Assembly (NCBI GenBank): GCA_015178975.1
Contig: WHVD01000015.1
Span: forward strand, 186,001 to 250,000
Length of the DNA stretch: 64,000 bases
Direction: 5' to 3'
Source: Hysterangium stoloniferum
Lineage: Eukaryota > Basidiomycota > Agaricomycetes > Hysterangiales > Hysterangiaceae
The position numbers and the translations under genes are program-made. Below the pieces are notes generated by a model that was given only the letters and a program-made list of their open reading frames with translations, searched no databases and had not been told where the DNA came from. Positions 1-36,502 of the stretch are shown here, one piece after another. Positions within the stretch are counted from its first letter, which is position 1, and every line of letters starts with the position of its first letter.

Positions 1-666
1 AGTTTCATCTTCAAGGTAGATGTGGATGTTGATGTATCCTAAGACCTTAGCATTACAGTCAGCTGAATGAGGTGCAGTTTGAGTCCTTGTTTGAGCTTGG
101 GGTGATCTTCTAGTTCCTTATAGAAATCCTCTGAAATTAGGGAAAGGTCAGCCCCAGCGTCCAGCCTGATTTTGATAAGGTTAGAGGCTTCTGAATGCCC
201 TATGTGCCGTAGATGTGTAATGCCAAGATTCCTATACTGGAGTATCCACTGGGAGGATCCCTTTGCAATAAATGATAGTTGAATCCTCCTTCATCAGCTG
301 ACTGGACCAAGGATATTGGACCTTGGGTCTTTTACTTTCCCTTTTTGCAGCCAGTTTGACATCCCTCCTGACACATCTACTGTTAGTACCTTGGGAGTAG
401 CACTTGGGACAGGGTCATCTGCTTCTGAGTCCGAATCCTTGTAAGGAATTAAGGTGGGTAGTGGTCCTGGGTCAAAAGGGAAGTTCTCCTCTTCTGATCC
501 CTCTAACCTAGAGGGGTCTTCTATAACATAGTTCTGACTTATTTCCTTGGATTGATTCATAGATACTTCCTCATTGATGATTTGCTCAATGGTAGGAAGT
601 TTAGATTGCAATAAGGCTTCCATCTTGGTCAGACCTTTCTGGTTCTGACGATGAGCATCCAGCCAG
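1..666 (-). pseudogene. Ty3/gypsy element A2, protease-region fragment (runs off the left edge)
   Basis: This is the left part of an old minus-strand gypsy element whose right part resumes at 14546. The frame from 623 to 294 matches, region for region, the frame from 8623 to 8369 of the complete element A (both share the motif EEENFPFDPG). Below 180 the reverse strand reads I-R-L-D-A-G-A-D-L-S, the protease active-site region. The sequence stops at the GCCAG target site (662-666), where element A inserted. The open frames are short and broken, so this is a dead fragment. The rest of its pol gene lies outside the window. Confidence 0.85.
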
Positions 667-1301
667 TGTGAAGAGTGGTGGAAGTTCTAACCATTCTATA
701 TATGAAGAATATTGACCGTTTAGGTACAACACAAAGATGCATTGACTATCTAAGTCTAATACAGACTGAACATGTATTGACTGTTTAGTTCAATACAGTC
801 GGGTGAAATAGCTATCTAAAGTAGAATAGAGAGCTAAAATGAATAAGGAGAATCGACTATGAAGTACGATTCTGAGGGACTGCTTGAGTGTAGAAGAGAA
901 TAATGAGAGAGTCAAATAACAGAGTAGCATGGATGTAGTCTACACGAATTGAGATAAAAGTGGAGTTTCGACCAGTATAGTTTGAAACTCTGATTGCATT
1001 GATAGTCAAAGCCCATCTGTGATGGTCGAGACGATGCCCCAATCACAACTTACAGGACACTAATCGATGTCTGGGTAAGTCATGGTTGTGGGGTAAAAAG
1101 TGCCTGAGTTCTAACTATGGGTGCTAGAATATATAAGTTTGGCATGTTTGTGCCCACAAGAGTCGATGTACTGCATACATAGGTCGTCAAACTAATTATA
1201 AGTGTATAATAAAATAGAGAGAAAGTAGAAATAATAATAGAAATATAGTATGAGCTCATCCAGACTATATTTCCCAAGTATATTTCACTGTACCTCTCAC
1301 A
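667..1301 (-). repeat. 3' LTR of element A
   Basis: This 635-bp LTR begins TGTGAAGAG and ends CCTCTCACA. It matches 13911-14545 over its whole length. Wherever I compared the two, the differences were nearly all C/T or G/A changes. The minus-strand purine stretch GGGAGG just inside the element (about 1305-1312) is a weak polypurine-tract candidate. Confidence 0.92.
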
Positions 1302-1326
1302 GTGCCTCCCAGGTCGAAGAGCTATG

Positions 1327-3816
1327 TCAAAGAAGGTGTTGAAGGACACTTGGAACTCCTCCCCATGCATCCTGCAATGAACCTCCAAGGTGCAGGATAG
1401 CATTTACCCAGGTGAGACACTTGGTGTGAAAAGAAAGGGCAATGTCTTCCCGCTTCAAAACGTCGTTGGCAGATGTCAACCCATCCAGTTTCTGGATTGA
1501 AGAGACCCAATGACTGTAGGCCTTCTGACATGTTCTAATGATGGTGCGAACACAATCAGTGGAGGTGTCAGTGATGCAGGCAATGAGAGGAGGCCAGGGG
1601 TGTAGTGATGGTGGGGCAGGAGTGAGAAGTGGTGCGCAGCTTGCATCTCCACCAGAGGGAAGTCCTCCCGAGGTGTCAGAATCTGGCAACAGATGCTCCA
1701 ACAGGTCGACTAGGTCTGCAGCTGAGTGGATCAGTGCATGCTCAGGAAGGACGCAAGAGGAGTCAACGAGCAGAGACCGAAACATGGAGAGCTCAACCCG
1801 CTCGATATCCTCTGCTAAATGCAGCTGTTCCTTAGGGTCATTGACGCATAAGTAAAATGTACTTATGCAGTCCGACAGTGTGAGAGACCCGCTATACCCT
1901 TGAATATGCCCTTTAAGAAGGGGGTGCTGTAAGGTTGGCCCTAGTCGCATTAATGTGTGTCCCACAGTGAAAATGTCAGAGAGGTAGTTAATGGACATAT
2001 GCATCCAACTTGCCTGTAAGAAATGAGCCAAGTCGGCCGTGTCCTGAGAGTGAGGGGGAGAGGGTGGCTGTGGCGGGGAGCTGCAAATGGGGTCGGCTGG
2101 GAAAGGGTCAATGACATGGGGCTCGTCGGCCTGAACATCAGCCTTCTGCTTCCCCTTTGCCTTTTCGCTTAAGGGGGGAGGCTCCTCAAAGACTTCCATG
2201 GCTGGGAGAGGCTCCTTGAAGACCTCCGTGGCCAGGGAGGGTTCCTCGAAGACATCCATGGCTGAGGGAGGCACCTCGAGGGCATCTGGGATAGGGTGAT
2301 CAACATCCATCAATGCAATATTGGGTTGATGAATGGGGCTCCCCAGGGAAATGTAAGGTGAGTAGGGAGAGACAGGTGGTAGACTCTGCACTGGCAGGGG
2401 AACCAGGGGAGTGTCTGACACTGCAGGGGACAATGGTGTCGGGGTAGAGTGGGTGGCGACAAGGGGGCCAGGTGACATGCATGGGGGTGGGGTTGGCCGC
2501 AGTACTGGAGTGGGCTTGGGTGTGGGTGGGGGCAGTGGTATGAGGGAAGGTCCTGTGGAGGGGAGGGTTAATGGTATGAGGGGAAAAGAAGGCAGGTCAG
2601 TGGATGGTTCATGACCTCCTCGCAGCTCTGAAAAGGGTGTAAAGTGCTGCAGGGGGGGCGCGGAAGAAACGGGTGGAGGTGGAGAGAGGTGAGAGGAGCT
2701 AGACAGCATCGCAGGGTCGGCTGGATGACACCCCCTCCAAACTCTGACAGAAGTCGGCAGTTTTCGCTGTTGATTAGGGTCACTTGTGAAGAAGTGAATA
2801 TTGTCTGGAAGTAAAAAACCTTCGTGGCAATCAGTGCCGAGGTACTTGCCGTTGTAGGTGGGGTAGCATGATTGGTCATCCTCCAAATTGGATGAGAAAT
2901 CAATGGGCCCCATCCGGTAGGTTTGTTCCTGGGGCCCACATTGGGAAGGAGGTCTGGGAGGTAGTGCAACTCTGTCCCCACGTCGCAATGCAATGATTTG
3001 TAGTTTGATCCTCTGTACTTTGTCCCAATTGTAGAAGGTGACCCCATCTTTTCCTTTCCTGCTCTTCTGTCCTACACTCCTAACACATGGCGTGCCCCCA
3101 TCACTGCAATCCATCTCAGTGGAATCCGTCCATTTATGGCCCAGGGGGGGAGCAATGGTTGAAGGGTTGTTGTTTCCTTCCATTCTCCTCCATTCCTGCC
3201 GTGTCCGCTTTGAGGGGACATTATCCCTAGCACCCATCTTTCGCTGTCCTTCTAAGTACTCCTCCCTCCTTTTCCTCTTAAGTGTTTTTAATTCCTCCTG
3301 AACCTGCATGGAGAAAGCCTCGGACTGCCATTTTTTCCTGATCTCCTCCTTGGTGGAAGGGAAGATGCTACAAGGAGGTGGGGGGGTTTCACTCCATGTT
3401 CCTGAGGGAGCCCCCCAAGTTCCAGAGGGTAGGGACGTGGCTTTTGGAACGGGGTCTGTCCATGTAGGGTATGTGGACAAAGAGGCCTCCTCCAAACACT
3501 TGACAATTTCTGTTCGAGGTGGTGGGGAAGGAGGAACCGTTGTTTGGGGTCGAGGTATCCTTTTAAAGTTGGGAAGTCGGGGTCTAGGGGGAGGAGTACA
3601 TGGAGTGAAAGCAGTTCCACTCCCTGAATTGGTGGAGGTTCCTGCCGTGTTGTCCTGTGCAGAGGGGTGCATCGACGATGGCATCCCAGAATTACCCATA
3701 CAGTGCTCAATGTTTTCAGTATGAGACGATGTGGTAGAAGTATTAATAGGTTGGGGTTGTGGTATTCTCTTGGAGTTGGGGAACTTGGGTTTGGGTTGTT
3801 GTTCCTGCAACATCAT
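1327..3816 (-). CDS. Unbroken 829-aa ORF between integrase and 3' LTR of element A, function unknown
   Basis: This long ORF lies on the coding strand of element A, about 240 bp downstream of the integrase/chromodomain region, and its stop lies 25 bp before the 3' LTR. I do not recognise the family. Residues 1-180 are rich in Pro, Ser and Thr and carry two similar K/N-x-K-R-I-P-x-P-Q motifs. A basic Glu/Lys/Arg-rich stretch (around 155-210, with K-R-K-R-R) could be a coiled coil or nuclear signal. Residues about 370-600 are strongly Pro-rich, with a short repeat (MEVFEEP type) and S-E-K-A-K-G-K-Q-K. The last 230 residues look folded and mostly helical. I see no signal peptide or membrane span, so it does not look like an envelope protein. 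It stays open for 829 codons while the neighbouring pol gene is riddled with stops. Confidence 0.7.
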   Translation of the reverse strand: MMLQEQQPKPKFPNSKRIPQPQPINTSTTSSHTENIEHCMGNSGMPSSMHPSAQDNTAGTSTNSGSGTAFTPCTPPPRPRLPNFKRIPRPQTTVPPSPPPRTEIVKCLEEASLSTYPTWTDPVPKATSLPSGTWGAPSGTWSETPPPPCSIFPSTKEEIRKKWQSEAFSMQVQEELKTLKRKRREEYLEGQRKMGARDNVPSKRTRQEWRRMEGNNNPSTIAPPLGHKWTDSTEMDCSDGGTPCVRSVGQKSRKGKDGVTFYNWDKVQRIKLQIIALRRGDRVALPPRPPSQCGPQEQTYRMGPIDFSSNLEDDQSCYPTYNGKYLGTDCHEGFLLPDNIHFFTSDPNQQRKLPTSVRVWRGCHPADPAMLSSSSHLSPPPPVSSAPPLQHFTPFSELRGGHEPSTDLPSFPLIPLTLPSTGPSLIPLPPPTPKPTPVLRPTPPPCMSPGPLVATHSTPTPLSPAVSDTPLVPLPVQSLPPVSPYSPYISLGSPIHQPNIALMDVDHPIPDALEVPPSAMDVFEEPSLATEVFKEPLPAMEVFEEPPPLSEKAKGKQKADVQADEPHVIDPFPADPICSSPPQPPSPPHSQDTADLAHFLQASWMHMSINYLSDIFTVGHTLMRLGPTLQHPLLKGHIQGYSGSLTLSDCISTFYLCVNDPKEQLHLAEDIERVELSMFRSLLVDSSCVLPEHALIHSAADLVDLLEHLLPDSDTSGGLPSGGDASCAPLLTPAPPSLHPWPPLIACITDTSTDCVRTIIRTCQKAYSHWVSSIQKLDGLTSANDVLKREDIALSFHTKCLTWVNAILHLGGSLQDAWGGVPSVLQHLL

Positions 3817-4061
3817 GTACTGATTTGAGAGGTTGACGTGGAGGGAAGAGACAGGGGGATAAAATTTTCTTTAGCGGATTTACGTATTTTATATTAATTT
3901 TAAGCTCTGCTCAGTTATTGAGGTGAAAGGCCAAGGGGGATGAATAGTGAAGGGTAGAGTTAAAAGTAAATAAACAGTGTTGTCATCATGGGGAGGTGAA
4001 ATAATGATTAGATTCGATAAATAGTTTTGTAAGCTCTGAGAAGAGCGGGGGCATTACGAAG

Positions 4062-5382
4062 GTTGTTGCCATTTAACCAGCTGTCCTCTTCCAGTCCATA
4101 TCCTTTCCATCAAACTTGGAAAAGGAGTCAATTTCGATGCTTTTTGTGTCCTACTATAGCTTCTACCTCGTATTCCTCGTCATTACAGTCTAGTTCCCGA
4201 GGACTCTCGAGTAGCTCCCTTGATCTGAATTCCTTGGGGGAGAGATGGTACTTTTTAAGATGGTCTCGGTTGATTACTGGGTGTAGTTGATATTCTGATG
4301 GAATGCGGAGTCGAAAGACTTGAGGATTGATCTTCTCCAAGACTTCAAATGGCCCTATCCATCTTTGTATAAGTTTCCTCCCAGGTCCTTTGGCTTCAAC
4401 AAGCTCGAGAGAATGAGGATTGATTAGAACATAATCTCCTTCTGAGATATCTTCCACCGATCTCCTTTTCTTATTGTAGCTGTGAGCTTGCATTTCTTGT
4501 GCTCGTGCAATCAAATCCTGTGCCACCTGTTGATGGTTCTTCAATTCTAAGATCCATTGGTCAGCTAAAGGGCTATCCAACAATTCCTTGGGAGCCATGG
4601 GGTCATCCCCTCCTGGGCAGCGAGACATTCCTCTTGGTAAGTATCCCATCAGCAAAAAGGCCGGTGTGTAGCTTGTTGAACTCTGAAGCATCGAATTGTA
4701 GGTATGAGCCACCACCTGAGTCCATTTAGACCATCCCTCTTTCGAAGAAGCACAGTACACTCTGAGCATTTGCTCAATGATAGCATTGGCATTCTCCGTT
4801 TGACTGTCAGTTTGAGGATGATGAGACGAGGATATTATGAGGGCACTTCTGTATACCTTGCAGACCTCTCTCCAGAACTTACAGGTCCTCTTGTCTTGAT
4901 CACAGATTATTCTTGAGGGTAGGCCAAATGGAGCAGCTACTTTATTCACAAAGATTTGCACGAATCCTTCAGTGGATAGATCTGAAGTCGTGGGCTCACA
5001 AATTAGAAAATGCATGAGTTTATCCACAGCGACAAAGATGGCTGAGTAAGCACCCTTTGCAGAAGGAGGTAATCCGGTAATCAGGTCCATTGAGACAACC
5101 TCAAATGGCCTTAAGGGTACATCCGTGGGTCGAAGAGCTCCTTGTCGAGTGGTATGATCAACCTTAGTTTTCTGGCATATGTCACAGCGGTGAGCGTACA
5201 CCATGCAGTCCTGCAACATCCTTGGCCAGAAAAACTGGTCTTTCATCAGCTGGAAAAGTCTGTGGCCGCCTGCATGAGCTCCTTTGAAGGGGTTGTCATG
5301 TATCAATTTGAGTATGGTTGACATCATGCTGCTAGGTACACAGATTCAAATTTTCCAGTCCAAATCTCGAAAGAACAATAGC
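4062..5382 (-). pseudogene. Integrase with C-terminal chromodomain, element A
   Basis: The main frame (5327-4128) reads in order: an HHCC zinc-binding region (H-A-G-G-H, then C-D-I-C), the integrase core with Asp in M-D-L-I-T-G, Asp in I-I-C-D-Q-D, and Glu in Q-T-E-N-A-N. A GPF-type C-terminal module (G-P-F-E-V-L) and the start of a chromodomain (V-E-A-I-V-G-H-K) follow. The chromodomain continues past a TGA at 4128-4130 into F-Q-V and, after another TGA (4110-4112), W-K-G-Y-G. A TGA at 5346-5348 separates the N-terminus. All three stops sit where CGA/Arg would fit. Integrase joins the cDNA into chromatin; the chromodomain normally binds methylated histone H3. The gene is inactive as it stands. 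Confidence 0.88.
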
Positions 5383-6177
5383 TTATTCTTGCCGATGAAA
5401 TAGTGCGAAGGGGTAGCTACCATATTTGGGGAAATAGGATCTGCAGCGTAATGATTTCTGAAAGTAAGATCTTTCTGATACATATCCATCGTGAAGTTCC
5501 TTAGCATAGTTCTCATTGATATCTATAAGCAATTGGAGGTTCAAGAGAGTAAACTTTGCCTCATCAATTTCATCATTTCTGGGGAGGTTGTGCAAATCCC
5601 CATTCATTTGGGGGACTTCTTCCATCATTCCAATTGGTTCAACTAACTCGTGATGAGTGAGAAAAATGGCCTTTTCCGCTGGTTTGTTCTCCCATAATGT
5701 CTCATTGTCATTCCAGTTGTAAGAATCTGCTACGATTGGTAAGAGGTCATCTCTCGCAGGACTAGCACAGTCAGGTACTTGAGGAAGTCTAGACAGTGGG
5801 TCAACAACGCTGTGTATCTGTCCCACTCAATGTAAGATTTCCAGACTGGGGTATGCAGCATATACTGCCCCCCATGTGGCCAGTCGACAATTGGTATTCT
5901 CGTAAGATCTGGCCCATTGTAACGCCGCATGATCAGTGATCAGAAGGATATGTTCTCCCTCAATAAAGGGCTGGAAATGGACTAGTCCCTCTTTAGCAGC
6001 TAATGCTTCTTGTTCCGTGGCTGAGTAATTACATTCTGCTTTCTTGAGTGTGCAGCTCCAATAGGTGATGATGTGCTCGACAGTGACACTGGTGTTGTCA
6101 AAATCTGAGGCCCAGGAATCCATCCAAGTGAATTCTGGCTCCTTGGTTTTATAACGAGTAATGAAAATGGGCACGTC
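5383..6177 (-). pseudogene. RNase H and linker to integrase, element A
   Basis: Two frames (6174-5827 and 5826-5383) cover the second half of the RNase H domain and the tether to integrase. RNase H motifs seen are N-Y-S-A-T-E-Q-E-A-L (catalytic Glu) and L-I-T-D-H-A-A-L (catalytic Asp). The first Asp (Y-T-D-A-S) lies upstream at the end of the reverse transcriptase frame. The junction at 6178-6180 is a TGA in S-stop-D, fitting CGA. The frame change at 5826 breaks the conserved W-G-A-V-Y-A-A-Y-P stretch from the linker. RNase H removes the RNA strand of the RNA:DNA hybrid during reverse transcription. Confidence 0.85.
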
Positions 6178-7295
6178 TCATGATTGATTGAAGGCTGATC
6201 TTGCTTGGGCATAGATTTTGGTATCTTTTAGGTCTTTGAGCATCATTTTCTGTATTTGTTGAAAACAACATCCCAGTGCGAAGTCTGAAGCATCCGTGTA
6301 TAACTGATAAGGCATGCCACTCACGGGGTGTCCGAGTACTGGAGCAGAGCTCAATGCCATCTTGATGTCTTCAAGAGCTCGGGCATGTTCAGAATCCCAA
6401 GTCCAACGGACTCCTTTCTTTAAGAGGTTGAAGAGCAGAGCAACGATCCAGGAATAAAATGGTATGTAAGCGGAGAAGTACAGGACCATCCTGAGGAAAC
6501 GTTGAAGATCTGCTATCTTGGAAGACGTAGCTAGTTCTAGTATGGCAGTGACCTTTTCTTGATGGGTCGAAAAACTGAGTCTAGACACCTTATATCCTAG
6601 TAATAGAATCGAGTTATACCCAATGTAGCACTTTTTGGGTGAGAGAGTGATTCCTGCTGCAATTATGGCTTGTAGGACCTGGTCTAAATGCTCTAAATGA
6701 TCATCCCATGTCTTAGAAAAGATCACGATGTCGTCAATATAAACTAGGCAGAATATCCATAAGTAAGGTGCAAGGACAGTTTGCATAACTCTCTGGAATA
6801 TAGAGGGTCCATTACGAAGTCCAAAGGGCATTCTCCTGAATTGCCACAGTCCTCGATGGGATCTGAAGGCAGTCTTCAGTTTGTCTTCTTCTAGCATTTC
6901 AAGCTGGGTAAAGCCGGCTAGTGCATCGAAGGAAGATAAGATGTTGGATCCTGAAAGCGCTTGCATGATTTCAGACTGGCGTGGCAACGGGAATTTGTCG
7001 GGAACTGTTAGGCTGTTCAACTTCCTATAGTCAATCACCACTTGTGGTTTCCCATTGCAATAGATGACAAAGGCTGGTGCCCCCAAGGACTTTTGGACAA
7101 TTTGATTACTCCCTGTTGAAACCAAGTATCCATTTGTTCATCAATGACCTTCCTATTAGCTGGGGAAGTTGGAAACATTGACATTGAAATAGGTTGCACA
7201 CCTTCTTTCAATGGGACTTTGACTTTGACGTCTACTTGTCCTAAATGCCCGTCTACTCCAAAGGCTTGAATGTTCTTAATCAATACCGACTCCAA
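6178..7295 (-). pseudogene. Reverse transcriptase, element A
   Basis: The frame 7125-6178 (315 aa) contains the gypsy RT motifs in order: V-I-D-Y-R-K-L-N, S-S-F-D-A-L-A-G-F-T-Q, R-M-P-F-G-L-R-N-G-P, the catalytic Y-I-D-D and L-L-G-Y-K-V-S. It ends in the first RNase H motif Y-T-D-A-S. The N-terminal fingers part (N-R-K-V-I-D-E-Q-M-D) lies in another frame at 7295-7035, so a frameshift sits near 7040-7125. The domain is otherwise well preserved and closely resembles the RT of the plus-strand gypsy element at 36503-38731. Confidence 0.9.
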
Positions 7296-7299
7296 GTGG

Positions 7300-8800
7300 G
7301 AGGAGACATCAAGTGGGAGGAGATGTCAGTAGGAATGTCAGGTCCTAAGTTAACCAACTTATGTAGGTCCTCTGCACAAAATGTTTCCATGGTGGCAACC
7401 TCTGATGTTTTAGGGCCTGCTGGGTTGAAATCGTCTGCAAGTTCCCATTCTGGGGGCTGTCCAGAAGGTCGAGGATTAAGGACATGCTCCTCTTCTATTC
7501 TTGATAGGCTCTCTACGAGGTGAGCGATCTTAGTTGCCATTGACTGCATTGATGCCTTCTCAGCTGAAGATCTAGGTGTCTGAGCCCATCTGTTCGTGTC
7601 ATGAATTAATCCAACAGTTTCCCCTCATCTAATGATTCTTGGTGTCAGAGAGGGGTTAGTGAGAGGTATCGCGGCACGTTCCCTAGAGATAGCAGTGGTG
7701 GGAGTGGCTAGTATACTTCCATTGTCATTCTGTAAGATAACTCCCTTGACTATCCATTGGTCACCGATAAGATCTCTGACAAAGATTGGTACTAATCGAG
7801 CTGATTCTGACTCTATAGTACAATCCTGCAAGGCCCATGCGACTCTTTCAGTACACACCCCTTTGTCTGGTTTGGAAGTGAGTCATTGGCTAGTTCCTCA
7901 AGGGGGATCTTGCTGATCGAAAAGGCTAAAGGCTGTGGCTCCTTGGAAGAACTGGCTGGGATAGACCCTGCCCTCCTGGAAGAATCAGTCTAGAGCCCAA
8001 CAGTTGGTCTTGTAGTGTCCCAATCTCATAGTTCATGTGAAAGTCCTCTCTGAGAAGAATTGGGATGGTCATGCCTCGGACAACATACATTTCGGTGGTA
8101 AATTTAAGGAGCATACCTGTGTCGTCTTTGAGGTAAATGGGGACATTGACATATCCTAAGACCTTAGCATTACCGGTAAGCTGTATGAGGTGCAACTTGA
8201 GTCCTTGCTTGAGCTTGGGGTGGTCCTCTAGTTCCTTATAGAAATCCTCCAAAATTAAGGAGAGGTCGGCCCCAGCATCCAGCCTGATTTTAATAGGGTT
8301 AGAGGCTTCTGAATTCCCTACGTGTCCGTAGACGTGTAATGCTGAGATCCCAATACTGGAGTATCCACCTAGGGGATCCCTTCTAAGTAAATAATGGTTG
8401 AATCCTCTTTCATAAGCCGACTGGATCGAGGGTATTGGACCCTGGGTCTTTTGCTTTCCTTTCTTGTGGCTAGTTTGACATTCCTCCTGACGCATCTACC
8501 ATTAGGTACCTCGGGCCTAGCGTTCATAATGTAGTCATCCACTTCAGAGTCTGACTCCTCACAAGGAATTAGGTTGGGTAACTGTCCTGGGTCGAAGGGG
8601 AAGTTCTCCTCCTCTGATCCCACTAACTCAGAGGGGTCTTCTATAATGTAGGTCTGACTTATTCCCTTAGATCAGTTCGCAAATACTTCCTCATCAATGA
8701 TTTCCTCAATGGTAGGAGGTTCAGGTCGCAATAAGGCTCCCATCTCAGTCAGACCTTTCCGGTTCTGATGATGAGTGTCCAGCCAGTCTCCTTTCTTGAG
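7300..8800 (-). pseudogene. Aspartic protease region and flanking linkers, element A
   Basis: The frame 8495-7926 carries a retropepsin-like domain: I-K-I-R-L-D-A-G-A-D-L-S-L-I followed by a flap-like region and I-P-I-L-L-R-E-D-F. The usual D-S/T-G active site reads D-A-G here, and the same triplet is seen in the A2 fragment at 1-180. Upstream, 8623-8369 is an acidic linker (EEENFPFDPG, then S-D-S-E). Downstream, frames 7858-7625 and 7549-7280 are the linker to RT and are broken by frameshifts. The protease would cut Gag-Pol; whether a DAG enzyme works is doubtful. Confidence 0.75.
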
Positions 8801-8862
8801 GAAATCACAGTCTGATATAGAAACATAGACTTGCGATGCTTTGTTCTCATTTGGAGGTGAAC

Positions 8863-9891
8863 TGTCAGGAACTGGAAAACCCGCCGGCCTCCAGGCCCCC
8901 GGACCCCATCCTATATGCTCCCAACCCTCTATATTGTATAGTTACAACTGGAGTTCCCACCAGAGCCCACACATCAACTTGTTTATGCCTGACTCTCTGT
9001 ACGCACCCCACCTGTCTGCACCTAACCCTCTGTGTCTCATACACCAGTCCTCGGACTCCACCAGACTCCGGACTCCACCCTACATACACCCGACACTCTG
9101 TGTCTTATATACCAGTCACCGGACTCCGACCGGACTCCCGGAACCCCTCTAACAGAGCATAGAACCCCACTCCTGTTATGATCTGTCTCTGCATCTCACA
9201 CACCAGTCATCGGAAAACCCACCGGACTCCACCGGACCTCCTGCACATCAAACTTGTCTATACCTGACACTATCTTTTGTACCAAGTCACCGGACTCTGA
9301 CCTGACTTCTGGAACCCCTCTAACTGAGCCCTGCTCCAGTTATGGTTAAATGACCTGTCATGATTTGTTCTCCACTCCTGTTCCGTTCCATCCCTAATTC
9401 CCAGTTTAGTATTTACTTGCTTCATTTTATGTTTAATAGTTCTGCCTCTCATTAATACTGGATTTGGTATTATTATATTTCACAGTCTATATAAGTCTGC
9501 TACATATATTCATGTACTTAGAATCCAGTTTCAATCTTGAACAAGTTTTCCCCCGAACAAGTTTGACCCTTGAACAGTCTCTAGTCTTCTTGTCTGTCTG
9601 CACACTCGATTCCCGGAACTCCCATGGGAACTCCGGAATCTATATCTTCCTATATGCATTCTGTACGAGGGTGCACCCTATAAGCTGAAGCCAAGTCCAT
9701 CTCAGTCGTTTACCTTATCTTTCTGGTAATTATTCTGATACCACCGTTCCTTGTACTAATATCCCCAGAACTTTCCCTGGACTTATTGCCTGGGGACTCC
9801 ATGGGACAATCCCCGGAAGCAGGTGTGTGTTTGGAATAATTACTGGAAACCTCCGCAGGACTATCCGTGGAGCTTTGTTCGCAACTTAACA
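8863..9891 (-). repeat. Solo LTR (B-related, long form) inside element A
   Basis: This is an insertion of about 1029 bp in the gag-pol linker of element A. Comparison with the uninterrupted A2 copy near 14618 places the junctions. It begins TGTCAGG and ends TTAACA, with degenerate flanks (TGAAC and CAAAC) that look like a decayed 5-bp duplication. It carries the shared LTR core (GAGGGTGCA then AAGCTGAAGCC) at about 9668-9700. Its middle part (from about 8938) resembles the ends of family B LTRs. No internal coding region remains. Confidence 0.7.
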
Positions 9892-10179
9892 CAAACTCGC
9901 ATCTAAAACAACGTCATCCTCTGATTGAGGAAGGTAGACAGAAATGAAAATCGATTCCTCATCAATGTTATGTACTTGTCCCTGTATGCTTAATCCATAA
10001 ACTGTTTCATAAGCCCTCTGATCCTCCTCCTCCTTAGTTGGGTTCTGCGTGGAGCATTTGTTAATAGAGACATAGTGCGACATCCTACCCATGTGATGGC
10101 AGTCAATCTTAAAATGCTCTAAACTCCCGCAAATCCAGCACTCCTTTGGGGGTTTAGCGACGCTTTTCTTGTCACTTTG

Positions 10180-10852
10180 GGAGGGTGTTTATAATTACTA
10201 TAATATCAAATATTTATTAATAAAAGCCTTATTTTTACAAAACTCCATCTTTAAATAGCAGTATCTATTCTGAGACTATTATATTGTTAGCCACCAACCA
10301 TAACAAACAATTCTCCATATTACATCCTAAATAATTCAGAGTCAATTAATAGAACCTATTGTATATAGTTTTCCAAGTTATGTAAATACTTGCTAATACT
10401 TTTGTTGTTAATTTGTTTTTTAAAAACTAAACTGTAGTTACATATTTCCTAGTAAAATATGTGAGATGTCATTGGAAATTTTTCATCCTATGGCCTTCTT
10501 TATTAAGTGAAATCACCTATATATTCTAGGTATGTTAAATCAAGTAGAAATCTGTTTAGATTGACAGATCCATTCCAAAGTAATACATATGTATTTAGAG
10601 GTGCCAATGATATGGAATGGACTATCTAAAGGTATCTATTTTTTAAAAGTATTAGTGTTTCAAACTACTAATTTTTTTTATTGTTTACTCATGTCCAGAA
10701 AGATTCTTTAGTTTGTAATGTATGTACAAGAGAGTTTAAAACTTTTTGAAAGTTTTAAAAACCAAATTATGTTTGAATCACATCCCAGATGTTTAAATGA
10801 CCTTTAGAGTATATTAGAATTTGGTATACTTAATAGTTTTCAGATATCCTCC
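10180..10852. mobile_element. Non-autonomous inverted-repeat element, family D copy 1
   Basis: This is about 670 bp of AT-rich, non-coding DNA inserted in the gag of element A. It starts GGAGGGTG and ends TATCCTCC. The same sequence recurs at 42353-43561 (there with an LTR inside), and the boundaries of the similarity match the inverted ends. It has no coding capacity, so it behaves like a MITE. The flanks (CACTTTG / TCATTTG) could be a decayed duplication, but the duplication length is unclear. Confidence 0.6.
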
Positions 10853-11524
10853 TCATTTGAAAAAGAACTTGCCATGTTTCTTACCCTGTTTTGTGTTGGA
10901 TCTTCTAGGGACGGTTTTATCTTCTGCTTCACTGAGAAGGACGTGGCCTCGATCAGTGTGGTCGATTCCTCTAGGGTGTTCTTCCTCATGCCAGGGATCC
11001 GACTCTTCCTGTTTGGTGATCATGACTCTGGGCTTTTGAAACTGATAATGCTCTCAATGTGTTTGCACCCAACCATTAATCAGAGCCTCTTGTAGATTGT
11101 TAGCATAAGTCTGCAAGCTTGTGATGTTGTCGATGGGTTGTCCTTGTAGAAGGTAAAGCCATTCTGTGGGCAGCGTCAGGATGAGTCTGCATGTTTCATC
11201 CTGTTGATTTTGGTGGAACCCATACAAGAATTGATAAAGCTTAATTCTCCATTGAATGTAGTGAATGGGTGTCTCACGGTTGTGGCTGGCTTGTCGAAAT
11301 TTCATGGCTTCCCATTCTAAGGCTAAGGATTCGCACCAATGAGTTCCGAGTAATCCCTCTATGATGCCCCTAAGGAACGATCCATGAGATCAACTGAATT
11401 CAGTGCAATGTTCATGGTCCAGGGTGCTCCACCAGATCTTGGCATTGCCGGTGAGTCGTCTTGGCAGAGCGACTCCTAACAACATGCTCATGGAGTCTGA
11501 TATCTCTGAGAGACTCATGATATC

Positions 11525-12239
11525 TGTCATGTAACAGGTAGATTTGATATCAATTACTCAAGCTGCTAACTAAATTGTCACACTACAGTCCATTCATTTG
11601 GTTTTTAGTCTCTCATCAGACAGAGTCAATTGTTATAATGCATGTATTCAACATACGAACATTACCAGGTATCTGAGCTATTAATGTTTGATACATGTAG
11701 TTAGGATACCTGTTTGTGAATGGACAGTAAAAATTCAAAATGCATATCATTTCTTAGCTAAAATTAATCTGAGACGATTGTAACAATCATGCACAGCACA
11801 CTATATTTCAATCATGCGCAGTTATTATGTAGCAACCGTAGTTTGTATGCAGTAATGTGCAGTTGCGCAGCACCATGCCTATGTATTTAAACAGCTGAGC
11901 TGGATCACGAAAATATAACTTTTGAACCCCCTAAACTAGACAACTTTGTCACATTTGCATTTGTGCATCTTATTCCACCTGTTCCAGGTTTACAGGATAT
12001 TACCTTTCTCAGATTAATGAGAATCACCCTTATTACTAACGTGACTTATCTTAGTTACGCACTCCGAACGAAAGCTATTCGTTCGTCTTCTGATATTTCA
12101 CTTTATCTTTAACTACTATTAAACAAGAACCCTAAACTAATAGTCTATTGACACACTCATCCCTTTCATATATAACAAGTTGATTTCTTTAAGTTACTGC
12201 TAAGTACCTAAGGACTCTCAGCATAAGACATACATCACA
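11525..12239. repeat. Solo LTR, family H, in gag of element A
   Basis: This is a 715-bp insertion starting TGTCATG and ending CATCACA, flanked by a perfect 5-bp duplication ATATC (11520-11524 and 12240-12244). The uninterrupted A2 copy near 15540 shows the empty site. No internal region is present, so it is the product of LTR-LTR recombination. No other copy is seen in the window. Confidence 0.85.
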
Positions 12240-13892
12240 ATATCCATGATGTAGTCCAAAGCCTTGAATTGAGTTCCATCGTATTCGGGAAGGTCAGACC
12301 ATTTTATCTTGATGTCATTGGTGTTAAGAGCGATCTTTTTATCCTTAGGTAAGTCATTGATAAGCACACTGGCTCAAGGCTGTGTCGGAGTTTGAAAGGG
12401 AGAGTTAGGGACTCCACCATGACACCCCCCACATCCCGAATTCCCTCCATAGTCAGAACTATTAGAACTCCCAGATGAACTGCTAGGGGATCCTCCTGGT
12501 GGCAGAAAGGGGTTCGAGGAGATTGGCAGGGAATGGCAGGGATCATCTGGATTCAGCGATCCTCGACCAGCAACCTGACCAGCTATACCCTCAGTGAATG
12601 TGGTAGAGAAGGATGGTTGACCCCTGTTGGCGACTGATCGATTCCTAATCGTGGGTTGTTCATCACCAAAGTTAGGATTATCTGAAATTCTTTCGAATGC
12701 GATGCGAGAGTGATGGGGTGCAGGGCTGGGTTCCATTGCAATTTCTCTCTCAAGTTCAATCATATTCAAAGGCTGACATGGCTGAGGCTGATGGAAGGGA
12801 GTGCAGATTTCAACCCCCTTTTCCTGAAGATGATCTGCAACTTGCATCCTCATATCCAACGGGAAGTCTTGCAAAATGACAGGGCAATTGAGCGAATGGA
12901 GAAAATGAGTATCAGGAGACCCATTCAGGTTGTGAACGAATGAATTAGTCGTGGAGATGGGTGAATCGGGCACTTGAATCGAATTATTATAAGGGTAAAG
13001 TACTTCCAAAACCATTTTATTGAGCCTCCTCTGATTTCACTTCAACTGGCCCCTTAGAGTACAGTACGCAAATGATAGATTTGGCGTGACTCCATTAAGA
13101 GATTCCTCCAACATTCAGATGTACATATACTGGTAGTCAACCTTAGGCACAATATGATCCTTACCAAGTAGGATACCAAGTAGGAATTTGCAGCGCATCA
13201 TCGTGTGCATGAAGTGCTTTGAGGAATAAAGAGAACACTTCCCACCTAAAAATCATCCTTCCCCCTTCCATAACGGATGTAACATCATTCGACCATTCGG
13301 GAATTGAGCATGTCAGATCCTCAAGGGTTCCTGGTCATGTGAATAAATCCTGTGCCCATAAGATGGCTTGATAACGACCTAACCAGACTGCTATAGTCAC
13401 CGGTAAAGGAGGGTAATCCGTATCATACTCCTCCACGAAAGGAGTAAGCTGATCATCAGGGATTCAATCGGCATAGTACATGTCCCATTTCACATCGATA
13501 GGCCCAGCGTAAACCATATGACCCCCAAGGAACTGCTTGAGGATGATCTGCCTTGGTGGGAATGAGAGAATGGGCTCGGGTGCATGGGTAGGCTTGACAT
13601 TAGCACCAGGGGTGCTCAACTGCCCAGTTGATGGACATTCCTCATGTGGATCAGGGGGAGTATCCATCGATGGTCCAGCTGCTGCTCCGGGGGAATTCCC
13701 AGGAGGGGCTGGTCTTTGAAAAGTCAATGAAGACTTCCTCATGGTGATGTTATGGGGTGGTTCCAGACTTGATGAGGTTTTGAACTACTCAGGGTTGTTG
13801 AAGATCTCGGTGTTTGGTTCTTGCCAGTGGTCATTTACATACTTAGAAATTAATAGTTGTAGAGTAACGTTTTCTTTGTAGGGAAAGAGCAG

Positions 13893-13910
13893 TCCGGCCC
13901 GGATCACCAC
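13893..13910 (-). other. Putative primer-binding site of element A
   Basis: Directly inside the 5' LTR, the minus strand reads GTGGTGATCCGGGCCGGAC, starting with TGG one base after the LTR as expected for pairing to a tRNA 3' end (CCA). The A2 copy has the same site at 17196-17213 except for changes at CpG positions. The tRNA identity was not determined. Confidence 0.55.
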
Positions 13911-14545
13911 TGTGAAGAGTGGTGGAAGTTCTAACCATTTTATATACGAAGAATATCAACTGTTTAGGTACAACACAAAGATGTATTGACTATCTAAGTC
14001 TAATACAGACCGAAGGCGTATTGACTGTTTAGTTCAATATGGTTGGGTGAAATAGCTATATAAAGTAGAATAGAGAGCTAAAATGAATAAGGAGAATCGA
14101 CTATGAAGTACAATTCTGAGGGACTGCTCAAGTGTAGAAGAGAATAACGAGAGAGTCAAATAACAGAGTAGTGCAGATGTAGTCCATGCGAATTGAGATA
14201 AAAGTGGAGTTTCAACTAATATAGTTTGAAACTCTGATTGCATTGATAGTCAAAGCCCGTCTGTGACGGTTGAGATGATACCCCAATCATAACTTACAGG
14301 ACACTAATCGGTGTCTGGTTAAGTCGTGGTTGTGGGGTAAAAAGTGTCTGAGTTCTAACTATGGGTGCTAGAATACATAAGTTTGGGATGTATGTGCCCA
14401 CAAGAGTCGATGTACCATATACATAGGTCATCGAACTAATTATAAGTGTATAATAAAATAGAGAGAAAGTAGAAATAATAATAGAAATATAGTATGAGCT
14501 CATCCAGCCTATATTTCCTGAGTATATTTCGCCATACCTCTCACA
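13911..14545 (-). repeat. 5' LTR of element A
   Basis: This 635-bp LTR has the same length and ends (TGTGA...TCACA) as 667-1301. To its right the sequence continues GCCAGTCTCCC, which joins seamlessly with the A2 sequence ending at 666. This proves that the whole 667-14545 block is one insertion. Confidence 0.92.
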
Positions 14546-17213
14546 GCCAGTCTCCCTTCTCAAGAAAGTCACAGTCTAATATAGAGATGTAGACTTCCAA
14601 CACTTCATTCTCATTTGAAGGTAAGCTTGCATCTAAAACTATGTCATCCTCTGACCGAGGAAGGTAAACAGAAACAAAAATTGATTTGTTATCAAGGTTA
14701 ATTACTTGTCCTTGTGTGCTTAATCCATAGACCACTTCATATACTCTCTGATCTTCCACTGCCTCAACAGGGTTCTGTGCAGATCATTTGTTGATTGAAA
14801 CATAATAAGACATTCTGCCTGCATGGGGGCAGTCAATCCTAAAGCCTGCAGATCCAACACTCCTTGGAAGGCTTGGTGATGCTTTTCTTTCAAAGAAGAA
14901 TTTCCATGTTGCTTGCCTTGTGCTGGGTTCAACTTTCTCATAGTGTTCCTGTCTCCAGCTTTGCTGATGAGAACATGACTATGAGTAGTTAACTCATCCC
15001 TAGTTGAGAATTCCTCTTCATCTTCAAAATTAAGTCTCTCTCATTCTGTAATCATGACTCTGGGTTTTTGGTATCAATAATGGTCACAATGAGTCTGGTT
15101 CCAAGCATTGATAAGGCTTCTTGCAGATTGTTGGCATAGGTTTGCAATCCCATAATGTGATCAATGGGTTGACCTTGCAGCAGATAAAGCCATTCTGTGG
15201 GTAGTGTCAAGATCAATCAATATGTTTCTTCCTTCCAATCTTGATGAAACCCATACAAGAAACAATACAGCTTGATTCATCACTAGATGTACTGTACTGG
15301 AGTTTCACAATTGTGATGAGGTTGATGGAATCACATTTCTTCCCATTCCAAGACCAAAGATTCACCCTATTTAGTTCCAAGTAGACCTTTGACAACACCC
15401 CAAAGGAAGGATTTGTGAGATCAACTGAAGTCAGTATGATGTTTGCTGTCCAACATGCTCCACCAGATTTTAGCATTGCCTCTGAGTCATCTAGGTAGAG
15501 TGACTCCCAGTAGCGAGCTCATGGATTCCAAGACTTCCAAAAGACTCATAATATCCAAAATATACTCCAATGCTTTAGAGTGGCTACCATCAAATTCAGG
15601 GAGATCAGACCATTTGATCTTGATATCATTGGTGTTCAGGGTAAGTGCCTTAGTTTTAAATAAGTCATTATCCTTGGTGCTAACTCGAGATGAATTTGGG
15701 AATCCAGGAGTCCTGGGATGTCACCCCCCATGTCCCTGGTTTCTGTTGCTGTCAAAACCATCTGAACTTCCAGATAAATCACTTGGTCCTCCCCCAGGAG
15801 GAATGAACAGGTTGATATTCATAGGCAAGTGGTGGTGGGTTTCATCAGGATCCAGTGAACCTTGACTGAATACTTGACCTGATATCCCTCTGACAAATGC
15901 TGTCAAAAAAGACAGTCAACCTTTATTGGTGACTGGTCTGTTGAGATTCTGGTGGGAGTTGTCAAAAGGGTTCAGGGTGATAGAGGTGGTGTCAAAGGTT
16001 ACTCTGGCATGTGGAGTTTCTACATTGGGAATTGTTTGTCGTTCCCTTAAAGCTTCCATTTCCAGTTCAGTCTACTAAGAAGATGATGCAGTTGTGGTTG
16101 GTGAAGGGAAAGTTTGACCAGAATATTCTTCTCCTGTAAATGTTCTGTCACTTTGATCCTCATGTCCATTGGAAAACCTTCTAGGATCAGTGGGCAATTG
16201 AGCAAACAGAGGAAACAAGTGTCAGGGGAACCCTTGAGCTCTCATATAAACAAGTCCATTGTTGAAACCAGAGAAGAGGGTATTTGCATTGTCTCATCAA
16301 ATTTGTTCAATAATTCCATCATCATCTTGTCATATGCAGGAGTCTAGACCAGAGGCTGAAATACACAAAGGATATGTTGGGTGACCTTTCATAGAGAGAA
16401 TGTTCTAAGATCCAAATGTATACATATATATTGATAGTTGACCTTGGGGATAGCATGAAGATGTCTGATCAGTATGTGCAAAATTTGCAACATATCATTG
16501 TGTACTTTAAGTACATCCACAAGTTGAATAAACAATTCCCTTTTTATTGCCATTCTTCCCCTCTCCATCAGGATCATGAGCTCCTTGGACCATTCAGGGA
16601 TCAATTAAGTGATATCTCCCAGAGTTCTTGATTGCATGAAGAGGGTTTGAGCTGATAGAATCCCATGATACCTACCTAACCAGGTTGCAATTGATGGAGG
16701 CATGGTGGGGTATCTCATTTGGTAGATCACTGTAATTTCCTCCTTCAAAATCCGAGAGGTGTAGTACATGTCCACTTGTCATTCATAGGTTCATTGTAGA
16801 CCAATTGTCCATGGTAGGCACATTGAAGCATTACTTGGCATGGTGGAAATTCAAAATCACATCATTATTATGGGTAGGCAAAGGGTTTCTTTCCAGTGCT
16901 TTTGATAGTTCCTGGCGTGAATGTGGTCCTAATTGACCGGGAGAGATGACTGTCAGTGGTTTGACTTTGGTTCAGGGAGAACCTCTGACAGAGGTTTATT
17001 TTTGGGAAGTCAGTGAGGGTTTTCTCATTGTAACATTTCCAGGTGGTTCAAGACTAGCAGGTCTTCATTCTGGAAAGGAACTACTCAATCTTGCTGAAGG
17101 TTTTGCAGCCTGTTCCTTGCCCATAGTCATTGTGTGTAGCTAATGTAGAAGTCTGTTACTTTTAATAAAATGTTTTCTTCATAGGAAAAGAATGGTCCAG
17201 CCTGGATTACCAC
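14546..17213 (-). pseudogene. gag of the older element A2
   Basis: This is the gag region of A2, collinear with gag of element A but lacking its LTR H and family D insertions. Short frames recover the acidic tail (14759-14541, E-D-D-I-V-L-D-A-S), the area around the zinc knuckle (about 14820-14870, degraded) and N-terminal pieces. Stops and frameshifts are dense, and the region looks older than element A. It ends at a primer-binding-like site next to the A2 LTR at 17214. Confidence 0.75.
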
Positions 17214-20635: not shown

Positions 20636-21553
20636 ATGATTACCCCACTTCCTACGGATGCTCTTGCACCCTCCATTGCCCTTGTTAGGACCAATATTAC
20701 CTACACCGGTCCTAAACTCGACAAACTTAAATCAAACTATTGTCCTTGGCTTCGTGCCTCGGACCTCTTTATCACCCTCTCTGGACTTTCTGGCTATATC
20801 AATGGTACGACACCAGAACCTGGTAATACTGAGCCTCGTGCCAAGGCCAACTGGCTGGCAAACAACTCTTTGGCTGCTGCACTTACTACATCCACTGTCG
20901 AGACGTCGGAGCAAGAATACCTTGACCACAAGTTGGGTGCAAAGGTCTGCTGGGAAATCATCCGTACACACCACCAAAGTGAGGGGGCCATTTTCCAGGT
21001 ACAATTACTTCAGGAGGCCCTCACAACTCGTTGTAATCGTTCCACTGCCTTACCCGTCACAGCTGAGAACATTTGTTCCCTAATTGATTGCACCTACGAG
21101 ATGGGCAACATTTCCCAGGACCTCTTGAAATGTATCGCTCTTTTAGGTTCTCTTGGCAATGATTTCAGCAATGTACGATCCATCATTACTCAGGATATCT
21201 CAGCTTCCACAGACTCTAACCCCTTCACATCTACTCAACTCTGTCTCTATTTGGATAATGAACAGAGTCTCATTAACTCCGACAAACCACATGCTACTGA
21301 GTCGCTCACCATGTCTGCTCAACATCCTTCAAAGTCAAACACCATGATCTGTTCTAATTGCAAACACAATTACCATGAAATGGAGTTTTGTATCCATCCT
21401 GGTGGAGGCATGGCAGGCAAAAGTCTTGATGAATCCAAACAGGCTCGCCGCCTTGCCCATGGTTCAAAATCAGGGAGTTCTGTTGTAGCAGCCACCAATC
21501 CCACCACTCCTAACTCTACTGTGCTGAAGGTCGTGTCTACATCGTTAATGTGA
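20636..21553 (+). pseudogene. copia gag
   Basis: A 305-codon frame starting at the Met at 20636, about 60 bp after the LTR, encodes a copia Gag-like protein. It contains W-L-A-N-N-S-L-A and the C-W-E-I-I stretch typical of the retrotrans_gag/UBN2 fold. A partial nucleocapsid knuckle (C-S-N-C then H and C) lies near residues 235-255. A frame change near 21520-21550 puts the protease region in the next frame. This was probably an indel, since copia normally has one ORF. Confidence 0.8.
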
Positions 21554-22080
21554 ACTCATCTGATTTCTCCTCTTCAGATGCCCCTATCGCCAATTTGGCC
21601 CTCTCAACCCCTACTCCTGTGCCTATGTTGCCACAGGACACTGTTGAATATCATGGCTGGCTCATCATCGAGGAGGAGTTATTTACTAATATTGATTGGA
21701 CCAAACATAGTCAATCTACGATGGCTGCCATCAATACTACTGATATTAACCCCATATCCCAATCTAATCATACACCCATTTCTACTGACTTGCATCCATT
21801 TTGGATGGATAGTGGTGCATCTGTCCATATATCCCCCGATCACACTGATTTTTTGACCTTGAACGCTGTCACTCCCCACTCTGTTAAAGGCTTGGGTGGT
21901 TCCTCGGTGTGGGCAATAGGTGTCGGAGACATAAAACTTCGAATTGGTTGTGGTACACATTTAATTTTAAAAAATGTCCTTTACATTCCAGATGCCACAG
22001 TATGATTAATCTCCATATGCCATCTCACCAAGGATTCAAATGTTATTGCACACTTCAATGACACATCCTGCTGGCTAAGT
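21550..22080 (+). pseudogene. copia protease region
   Basis: The frame 21550-22005 contains F-W-M-D-S-G-A-S-V-H-I, the D-S-G active site of the copia aspartic protease, followed by V-L-Y-I-P-D-A. It ends in a TGA (22003-22005) in the motif V-stop-L-I-S, where an Arg codon CGA fits. The protease would process the single polyprotein. Confidence 0.85.
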
Positions 22081-22980
22081 ATGAAATCATCTGGGACAAT
22101 TATCACTTGGGGAAACTTGCTACCACAAAAACATCTCTACTCCATAAATATCTACTCAGCCCAAGCTGAACATGCTTTTGTCACTCATCACATACCCACA
22201 ATTGAGACATGGCATCGTCGACTTGGCCATGCAAATTATCAAGCTATTTGTGACATGCTCAATACTGGCCTACTCAAAGGTGCAATGTCCCCCAGCCCTT
22301 CCATTACTCCCACTAATTGCGACTCCTGTATTCTTGGCAAACAGACTAAGTCATCAAAAGTGCAACAGGAAGGTCTAGGGCATAGGGCAACAAGAAAATT
22401 AGAAAAAGTATGGATAAACCTATCTGGACCCAGCCCCATTGCTTCACAGACTGGGAATCATTATGTTATGAATATTGTAGATGATTTTTCAAGTTTCTCC
22501 TGGACCATTCTGCTTAACCTTAAAAGTGATGCATTCCCGCAACTTCAATTCTGGGAGCATGCACGAGAAGTTGAGATGGGATTAAAAGTTGGCATTTACC
22601 AAACAGACAATGGAGAGCTTAAAAGCTATGAAATGGCTACTTGGCTGGCATCTAGGGGCACTGATCATCAATTTACAGCTCCATATACATCAGCACATAT
22701 CGGACGAGTAGAATGACTCCATCGCACTTTAATGGCCAAAGGCAAAACTATGTGTATTTATGCAGCACTACCTGCATACTTGTGGGATGAATTTTATCTC
22801 ACTGTGGCTCATTTACATGTCAAGACAACAACCAAATCTTTGTTAGGCAAAATGCCTTGGGAATTATGGTATGGCCAGAAACCAGACTACTCTTACCTAC
22901 AAGAGATTGGTTGCCACGCTTTTGTCTTAATTCAAAATCGGACCAATCCAAAAATTTATGAATGATCAATTGAATGCATT
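22081..22980 (+). pseudogene. copia integrase
   Basis: The sequence shows an HHCC zinc finger (W-H-R-R-L-G-H, then C-D-S-C), the first Asp of the core in N-I-V-D-D-F-S, the second in Q-T-D-N-G-E, and the Glu in R-V-E just before a TGA at 22714-22716. The frame continues at 22732-22965 to G-Q-K-P-D and is stopped again by TGA at 22963-22965 in Y-E-stop-S-I-E-C. Both stops fit CGA. All three catalytic residues survive, but the gene is interrupted. Confidence 0.88.
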
Positions 22981-22983
22981 CTG

Positions 22984-34720: not shown

Positions 34721-34725
34721 AGCTC

Positions 34726-36117: not shown

Positions 36118-36502
36118 AAGAACAAACGACTCAAGAAAACACTTCAAAACAGAGAAACTGATAATTCTGTGTGATCTGTCATTGGTATTACTATATCTCC
36201 AGAGTCAATCAGTGCAATTCCTGTGTCACTGACCTTTCCCGAGAAGTCAGACATAGCATATATTGAGAAGATTATCTTATCCAATCGAGGTGATCAAGAC
36301 TTTTATGCAGCACCCGATTCTATCATTACTCGGAAGAATCCACACTTATATGTTTCGAACTTTTCGAGTTTTCCAGTGCATATACATGAAGGTCAAATTC
36401 TAGGCTATTCACATAATCCTGAATCTTGGTTGGATAGTCCTGAGCATTTAAGTGAAGAACAACTTGACAACTTAAGTGCTCATGCCTATCTAGTTAAGAG
36501 CA

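What the first reader, a model, noticed from the sequence alone, without database searches (positions are those of the whole stretch)
1327..3816. An intact 829-codon ORF of unknown function inside a decayed gypsy element
The ORF lies on the element's strand between integrase/chromodomain and the 3' LTR, a place where most chromoviruses have nothing. The neighbouring gag and pol carry TGA stops and frameshifts, yet this frame is unbroken and richer in GC. It has a basic coiled-coil-like segment, a long Pro-rich part and a folded-looking C-terminus, with no membrane span, so it is not an obvious envelope protein. It may be a captured host gene, a family-specific accessory protein, or selected after capture.
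Basis: partly seen in the sequence, partly recalled or inferred. Interest (0 to 1): 0.78.

Follow-up and report, generated by a model that had tools for sequence, protein, structure and literature searches.

The report
Extra gene of a fungal retrotransposon
A high-copy jumping element in a mushroom-type fungus carries an extra protein gene of unknown kind beside the usual two, and natural selection kept that protein working while the element was spreading, so it probably helps the element rather than the fungus.

Summary
The ORF is real (minus strand, family-conserved start 3813, stop 1327). It is the third gene of a chromodomain Ty3/Gypsy element, between integrase and 3' LTR. It is no one-off capture: a 30-nt probe from its 5' end has 251 sites in the genome (reversed control 0), and 17 of 20 further integrase copies, not known beforehand to carry it, have it downstream. 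Most copies examined are broken (28 of 32). In 16 copies chosen by DNA similarity, private non-CpG changes look neutral (N/expected 0.93) while shared ones are constrained (0.36, 95% 0.28-0.45; 1 shared stop, 16.2 expected); shifted frames are not. Constraint lies in a basic helix block (0.11), a middle block (0.22) and a C-terminal block (0.16). So the protein was selected while the family transposed. The window copy shows no clear sign of later host selection. No relative was found in Pfam, PDB or capped searches of 5.8 billion proteins, where its integrase frame has 370. Hydropathy shows no membrane span. Best reading: a lineage-specific, probably nuclear accessory protein of the element, comparable to CERV of Cer1. 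Gene status is firm; function is inference.

The parts
1327..3813 (-). ORF3, 828 codons from the family-conserved ATG (an additional ATG stands at 3816)
3379..3813 (-). ORF3 residues 1-145: Pro/Ser/Thr-rich, weakly constrained; holds two copies of a basic motif, (K/R)FPNFKRIPRPQ in most other copies shown, both altered in the window
   Evidence: shared N ratio 0.68; motif seen
3064..3378 (-). ORF3 residues 146-250: basic block with a long helix (about 165-192, pLDDT block up to 93) containing KRKR
   Evidence: shared N ratio 0.11, helix, motif
2674..3063 (-). ORF3 residues 251-380: constrained middle block
   Evidence: shared N ratio 0.22
1966..2673 (-). ORF3 residues 381-616: Pro-rich linker, weakly constrained; the four indels shared by three or more copies, all multiples of three, lie about here
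   Evidence: 0.66; indels
1330..1965 (-). ORF3 residues 617-828: C-terminal block, helices predicted at low confidence
   Evidence: shared N ratio 0.16
3814..4010 (-). Spacer between integrase/chromodomain end and ORF3 ATG (197 nt in copy L025)
3886..3899 (-). TATA-like block AATTAATATAAAAT, about 85 nt before the ATG
   Evidence: mean minor frequency 0.009 against 0.044 for other A/T columns of the spacer, position; suggestive only
3840..3850 (-). CT-rich tract between TATA-like block and ATG
4011..5345 (-). Integrase with chromodomain, the latter cut by a stop in this copy
5386..8495 (-). Broken part of pol: RT and RNase H by Pfam; protease by position only
12374..13742 (-). Presumed remnants of gag (by position; no Pfam match to the part searched)
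   Evidence: a similar stretch FPPRQ(I/V)ILKQF follows the 5' LTR in L025
663..1302 (-). 3' LTR, 24 nt after the ORF3 stop codon
13907..14546 (-). 5' LTR

Best explanation
ORF3 is a regular gene of a high-copy chromovirus family. Shown: it sits in the env position in most copies sampled, is inherited together with integrase, and its protein was under purifying selection through the rounds of transposition that made the family; changes private to a copy look neutral, and decay is chiefly CpG C-to-T. Inferred: it is expressed separately from gag-pol, from its own promoter in the 197-nt spacer (TATA-like block, CT-rich tract, then ATG) or from a spliced RNA. The protein enters the nucleus through the basic helix, which may also self-associate; a flexible Pro-rich linker carries the C-terminal domain, which binds a partner. 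It then helps the element's own RNA or DNA in the nucleus, most likely by promoting expression or export of element RNA as CERV does for Cer1, or by opposing silencing. Gene status: about 0.95. Nuclear accessory or regulatory protein: about 0.45. RNA export or expression in particular: about 0.25.
For: Copies: (251 sites, control 0); presence after integrase in 17 of 20 further copies. Selection: 16 copies chosen by DNA similarity, shared non-CpG N/expected 0.36 (0.28-0.45) against private 0.93 (0.73-1.16), Fisher P 2e-9, shared stops 1 of 16.2 expected; control frames 1.30 and 2.14 with stops near expectation. Indels shared by three or more copies in frame 4 of 4, private 14 of 61. Other genes of the element, shared changes: pro-RT 0.07, RH-INT 0.08, gag part 0.27, ORF3 0.37. 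Conserved start in 30 of 32, frame different from that of integrase in the copies shown. Basic helix with KKKR and KRKR motifs, no membrane span by hydropathy. Three near-identical copies (L024-L026; 1 to 6 ORF3 differences) lack most of the integrase core; ORF3 is open in two of them and has one frame-shifting indel in the third. LTR pieces of one, L025, are 98-99% alike.
Against: No homologue or confident fold gives a biochemical activity. Short basic motifs occur by chance. The TATA-like block is not more conserved than the best of seven A/T-rich LTR windows. CpG changes show little or no depletion of nonsynonymous change (0.72-1.57 in the shared classes). Private changes in pol are themselves below 1 in the smaller samples (0.38-0.62), so 'private' is not purely post-insertion. 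No RNA or protein data. 28 of 32 copies examined have a stop or frameshift, so few could make the protein today.
Confidence: 0.5

Rival explanations
1. ORF3 is a second structural or particle protein (a Gag or integration-complex partner) acting in the cytoplasm or pre-integration complex, not a regulator.
For: Level of constraint (0.36-0.37) is nearer to that of the gag part (0.27, 6 copies only) than to pol (0.07-0.08); helical C-terminus (low confidence).
Against: No blastp similarity to the element's own gag-pol frames in L025; no Pfam match, so no zinc knuckle, in ORF3 of L025.
Confidence: 0.25
2. ORF3 descends from a host gene captured by an ancestor of the family and kept because its activity helps the element.
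For: Slightly higher third-position GC than gag-pol (0.553 against about 0.50); no relative among other elements' products in the searches made.
Against: No host relative seen either; but own-genome searches score only the best 40 or 55 candidates, so a single diverged host gene would be hidden.
Confidence: 0.15
3. This particular window copy of ORF3 has been kept by the host (domestication).
For: Open for 828 codons although its LTRs differ by 8.3% and its pol is broken about eight times; derived changes against its four nearest relatives would give about 7 to 10 stops at random, none seen, and N is 97 where 152 is expected.
Against: Private changes look neutral: N 21 against 22.5 expected, stops 0 against 1.1; about 250 copies or more exist and the copy was noticed because it is open; part of the changes predate insertion and were under element-level selection.
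Confidence: 0.06
4. Retroviral-type envelope protein.
For: Position between pol and 3' LTR.
Against: No hydrophobic segment strong enough for a membrane span; no Pfam match above cut-off.
Confidence: 0.02
5. Open by chance, not a gene.
For: Few CGA codons at risk in the window copy (8).
Against: Frame-specific constraint, near absence of shared stops, in-frame shared indels across copies.
Confidence: 0.01

Closest known systems
CERV of the C. elegans Cer1 Ty3/Gypsy element (PMC10309623, abstract and passages seen)
   Same: Large ORF between pol and 3' LTR, not an envelope, no obvious homologues outside nematodes, K/R-type nuclear signal, helical and predicted multimerising parts, highly divergent between species.
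   Different: CERV is 517 aa, its N-terminal half is spliced from exons shared in part with gag; ORF3 has its own conserved ATG and 828 aa. No sequence comparison was made. Nuclear location and RNA export are shown for CERV, only supposed here.
Sense additional ORFs (aORF-3S) of plant LTR retrotransposons (PMC7264820, first two of three parts read)
   Different: The plant ones are called env-like, some with transmembrane domains; ORF3 has none by hydropathy.
Antisense additional ORFs: maize Grande gene23 (PMC7264820, parts read), Retand TRP28 (PMC11963269, abstract), Botrytis Boty/BcGypsy1 brtn (PMC8365987, passages and a reference title)
   Same: Additional gene in an LTR element; gene23 is described as nuclear and transcribed from its own promoter; brtn is in a fungus.
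   Different: Antisense to gag-pol; ORF3 is sense.
Fungal Gypsy elements with 'add. ORF' of unknown function (PMC2864245, figure legend and passages seen; figure not held)
   Same: An additional ORF is marked in a figure of fungal (and one spikemoss) Gypsy elements.
   Different: Which element, position and sequence could not be seen; no selection test in the passages seen.
Bdelloid rotifer LTR elements with varied ORF3 (PMC5408684, abstract)
   Same: Non-envelope third ORFs beside gag and pol.
   Different: Those named are DEDDy exonuclease, GDSL esterase/lipase or fusion glycoprotein; ORF3 has no Pfam match above cut-off.

Membership tests
Chromovirus (chromodomain Ty3/Gypsy) | RT-RNase H-integrase order | tested here: met
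Chromovirus (chromodomain Ty3/Gypsy) | Chromodomain at the integrase C-terminus | tested here: met
   PF00385 E 1.1e-11 in copy L025; in the window it is cut by a stop
Chromovirus (chromodomain Ty3/Gypsy) | LTR pair with short target duplication | tested here: met
[quoted passage not shown]
   17 of 20 further integrase copies
Sense additional ORF (aORF-3S) | Protein-level conservation | tested here: met
Retroviral envelope / env-like | Membrane span | tested here: not met
   maximum 19-residue hydropathy 0.92 in L025; no dedicated predictor was available
Antisense additional ORF (aORF-3R; brtn, gene23, TRP28) | Orientation opposite to gag-pol | tested here: not met
CERV (Cer1) | ORF in env position unlike envelope | tested here: met
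CERV (Cer1) | Product of spliced RNA that includes gag exons | not testable with these tools
   no RNA data; ORF3 has its own conserved ATG
CERV (Cer1) | Nuclear protein needed for genomic RNA export | not testable with these tools
   only KKKR and KRKR motifs seen
CERV (Cer1) | Sequence or fold homology | not tested
   CERV sequence not fetched; own models too weak for a fold search
Captured host gene | Homologous host gene outside the element | tested here: inconclusive
   score only the best candidates; searches found no protein

The most novel reading that the evidence does not exclude
A fungal chromovirus family evolved its own nuclear regulatory protein, unrelated to known proteins, made from an internal promoter, that drives export or expression of element RNA or counters host silencing: a fungal counterpart in function of CERV or Rev, and a cause of the family's high copy number.
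Probability: 0.27. Interest if true: 0.72.

Novelty: new member of a known kind. Interest (0 to 1): 0.52.

Why it matters
In a survey of fungal Gypsy elements the majority of full-length ones had one or two ORFs, gag and pol only (PMC2864245, passage seen). A large extra protein kept by selection through many transpositions, with no relative found, shows that a fungal element can carry an accessory gene, and gives a concrete target for asking what limits retrotransposon spread in mushrooms. Three constrained blocks mark the parts to test. It also illustrates a general method: private against shared changes separates a gene selected in the element from one kept by the host.

Tried and rejected
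Homology: single-sequence and profile searches of 5.8 billion proteins found nothing; each scored only about 7,980 candidates sharing most words, the profile's words come from the first 500 residues, and Pro-rich words may have crowded out true relatives, so 'no homologue' is provisional. PDB profile search: none up to E 10. Pfam: over 14 members only weak matches (PYRIN in 4, best E 0.015; three others in 1 each), in C-terminal fragments PYRIN and paramyxovirus P/V at E 0.06-0.3, below the curated cut-offs given, taken as chance. Fold prediction without an alignment failed for the C-terminus (mean pLDDT 40) and gave one confident helix in the other job, so no fold search was run. ORF3 as a gag duplicate: no blastp hit. 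TATA-like block as proven promoter: rejected as unproven. Splicing to ORF3: considered, not testable. The first selection table mixes copies chosen by protein score, which favours intact ones; the headline numbers therefore use 16 copies chosen by DNA similarity. Rows dropped there: L017 and L027 (interrupted or incomplete), L024 and L026 (near duplicates of L025), L009 (the window itself). CpG changes are left out of the headline: shared CpG changes give ratios 0.72 to 1.57 by frequency class and stops up to 2.7 times expectation; I take this as recurrent CpG decay, and the choice matters. Literature: nine searches; listings and the passages seen (also PMC3248453, and PMC3411680) do not describe this ORF.

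Full report
What is there. The window is C57:186001-250000 of a 111-Mb assembly in 554 contigs. The element lies on the minus strand: 5' LTR 14546..13907, presumed gag remnants, broken pol, integrase with chromodomain, a spacer (197 nt in copy L025), ORF3, then 24 nt with a purine-rich tract, and 3' LTR 1302..663. The LTRs are 91.7% identical over 640 nt. It is inserted in another copy of its own family (2-667 matches 8119-8787 at 82%) and flanked by CTGGC.

The ORF. 829 codons from 3816, 828 from the ATG at 3813, the one shared by the family (ATG in 30 of 32 aligned copies, window included). Regions: residues 1-145 rich in Pro, Ser and Thr with a repeated basic motif; 146-250 basic with a helix around 165-192 predicted with pLDDT up to 93 in one block of ten; 251-380; a Pro-rich linker 381-616; a C-terminal block 617-828 predicted as helices at low confidence. 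No membrane span by hydropathy. The higher GC is mostly amino-acid content.

Family-wide. DNA search returned 49 matches with 40 of 498 candidates scored; protein search 63 matches with 55 of 2,688 scored. Of 30 rows that span nearly the whole protein (start at residue 11 or earlier, end at 829), four have no stop, one of them the window. A 30-nt probe has 251 sites with at most three mismatches, against 0 for the reversed probe. I then listed 40 integrase copies (40 of 598 candidates scored). Eleven were already known to have ORF3 sequence downstream (in one, 3 kb away); of the other 29 I fetched 1.1 kb downstream for the first 20: 17 of 20 have ORF3 sequence there, L044, L053 and L056 do not, and L052, counted among the 17, keeps only the 3' part. 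ORF3 and integrase distances agree (r 0.86, 0 of 2000 permutations, 17 copies).

Selection. The question is whether the frame mattered. Changes found in one copy only should mostly postdate insertion; changes shared by copies arose while the family was transposing. In 16 copies chosen by DNA similarity, non-CpG changes: private N 214, S 105, stops 13 (11.3 expected), ratio 0.93 (0.73-1.16); shared N 123, S 165, stops 1 (16.2 expected), ratio 0.36 (0.28-0.45); Fisher P 2e-9. The other two frames read the same way give 1.30 and 2.14 for shared changes with stops near expectation (7 against 7.6, 12 against 9.4). With all 32 copies: 1.05 private and 0.40 shared. By block, shared: 0.68, 0.11, 0.22, 0.66, 0.16 (all). 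Within the element the same measure on shared changes gives 0.07 for pro-RT (9 copies), 0.08 for RH-INT (16), 0.27 for a part of gag (6), 0.37 for ORF3 (18). In the same call private changes give 0.38 (pro-RT), 0.45 (gag part), 0.62 (RH-INT) and 0.94 (ORF3), so with few copies 'private' still includes older, selected changes; this blurs the contrast for pol but not for ORF3. Indels shared by three or more copies are multiples of three in 4 of 4 cases, private ones in 14 of 61. ORF3 was therefore a working gene of the element, constrained nearer to gag than to pol. Against this reading, CpG changes show no clear depletion (ratios 0.72-1.57 in the shared classes of 32 copies); I take this as strong CpG decay recurring in parallel, and they are left out of the headline.

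The window copy. 28 of 32 copies have a stop or a frame-shifting indel; the four without are the window, L024, L025 and L033. Window-private changes are N 21 (22.5 expected), S 9, stop 0 (1.1 expected). Against its four nearest relatives (at least three agreeing), changes on the window line would give 7 to 10 stops if random and none is seen; N is 97 where 152 is expected; part of that line was under element-level selection. Compared with its own pol (about eight breaks in about 1,495 codons, read) zero breaks in 828 codons has P about 0.01, but the copy was picked because it is open and there are some 250 copies or more. Stops in copies are mostly CGA to TGA (50 of 86 cells), and the window carries CAA or CAG at 7 of the 17 columns with CGA in three or more copies. 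I see no need for host selection, and cannot exclude it.

Young copies. L024, L025 and L026 differ by 1 to 6 of 2,457 ORF3 bases; two LTR pieces of L025 are 98 and 99% alike. In all three the integrase match starts only at base 462 of the window's frame, and L025's frame shows no integrase core in Pfam; in L025 and L026 the RT frame is also broken, and L024 has little RT sequence in the stretch fetched. ORF3 is open in L024 and L025; L026 has one frame-shifting indel in ORF3. They must have been mobilised by other copies (inference).

Relatives. None above cut-off in Pfam, none in PDB by profile, none in two searches of 5.8 billion proteins, while the RNase H-integrase frame of the same element finds 370. 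The limits of these searches are given under Tried and rejected. A second chromovirus-like element in the window (32956-40034) has no sense frame above 126 aa in the next 5 kb.

Expression. The spacer holds a TATA-like block about 85 nt before the ATG and a CT-rich tract between. Its first ten bases are the least variable of 20 consecutive blocks of the spacer (0.006; 0.009 over 14 columns), but one of seven A/T-rich LTR windows is as conserved, so this is a hint only. That TATA plus CT-rich tract is typical of fungal promoters is from general knowledge.

How it may work. The parts suggest a nuclear protein that may self-associate by the basic helix and hold a partner with its C-terminal block. 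The best parallel is CERV of Cer1: an env-position ORF unlike envelopes, without obvious homologues outside nematodes, nuclear, required for export of genomic RNA (PMC10309623, abstract and passages). Grande gene23 in maize is described as nuclear with its own promoter, though antisense (PMC7264820, two of three parts). Anti-silencing factors of plant transposons are a further model (recalled, not from a call). None of this is shown here.

Novelty. [quoted passage not shown] ORF' of unknown function in a figure I could not see (PMC2864245, legend). The protein itself matches nothing searched. Hence new member of a known kind, with a new protein.

Noticed in passing
window 1-667 and 8119-8787: The element is inserted into another copy of its own family (the stretch matches 8119-8787 of its own pol at 82%), with CTGGC on both sides.
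   Followed up: partly
L024, L025, L026: Three near-identical copies with most of the integrase core missing and ORF3 open in two of the three: a young non-autonomous lineage, apparently mobilised by other copies.
   Followed up: partly
window 32956-40034, + strand: A second Ty3/Gypsy chromovirus-like element with a 729-aa open RT frame and a chromodomain-like integrase end; no sense frame above 126 aa in the next 5 kb; its LTRs were not identified.
   Followed up: partly
window 8500-12374: Roughly 3 kb more between 5' LTR and RT than in copy L025, with repeats shared with other parts of the window: probably nested insertions.
   Followed up: no
window 20636-23964, + strand: Two open frames that look like pieces of a Ty1/Copia element (recognised by eye, not searched).
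   Followed up: no
ORF3 copies: Decay is dominated by C-to-T at CpG, the mark expected of methylated repeats; in the young copy L025 CpG observed/expected is near 1 (0.93-1.11).
   Followed up: partly
G000, hits: A related chromovirus family (about 58% to a Lyophyllum integrase) has many unbroken integrase frames in this genome and may be more recently active; whether it has an ORF3 was not seen.
   Followed up: no
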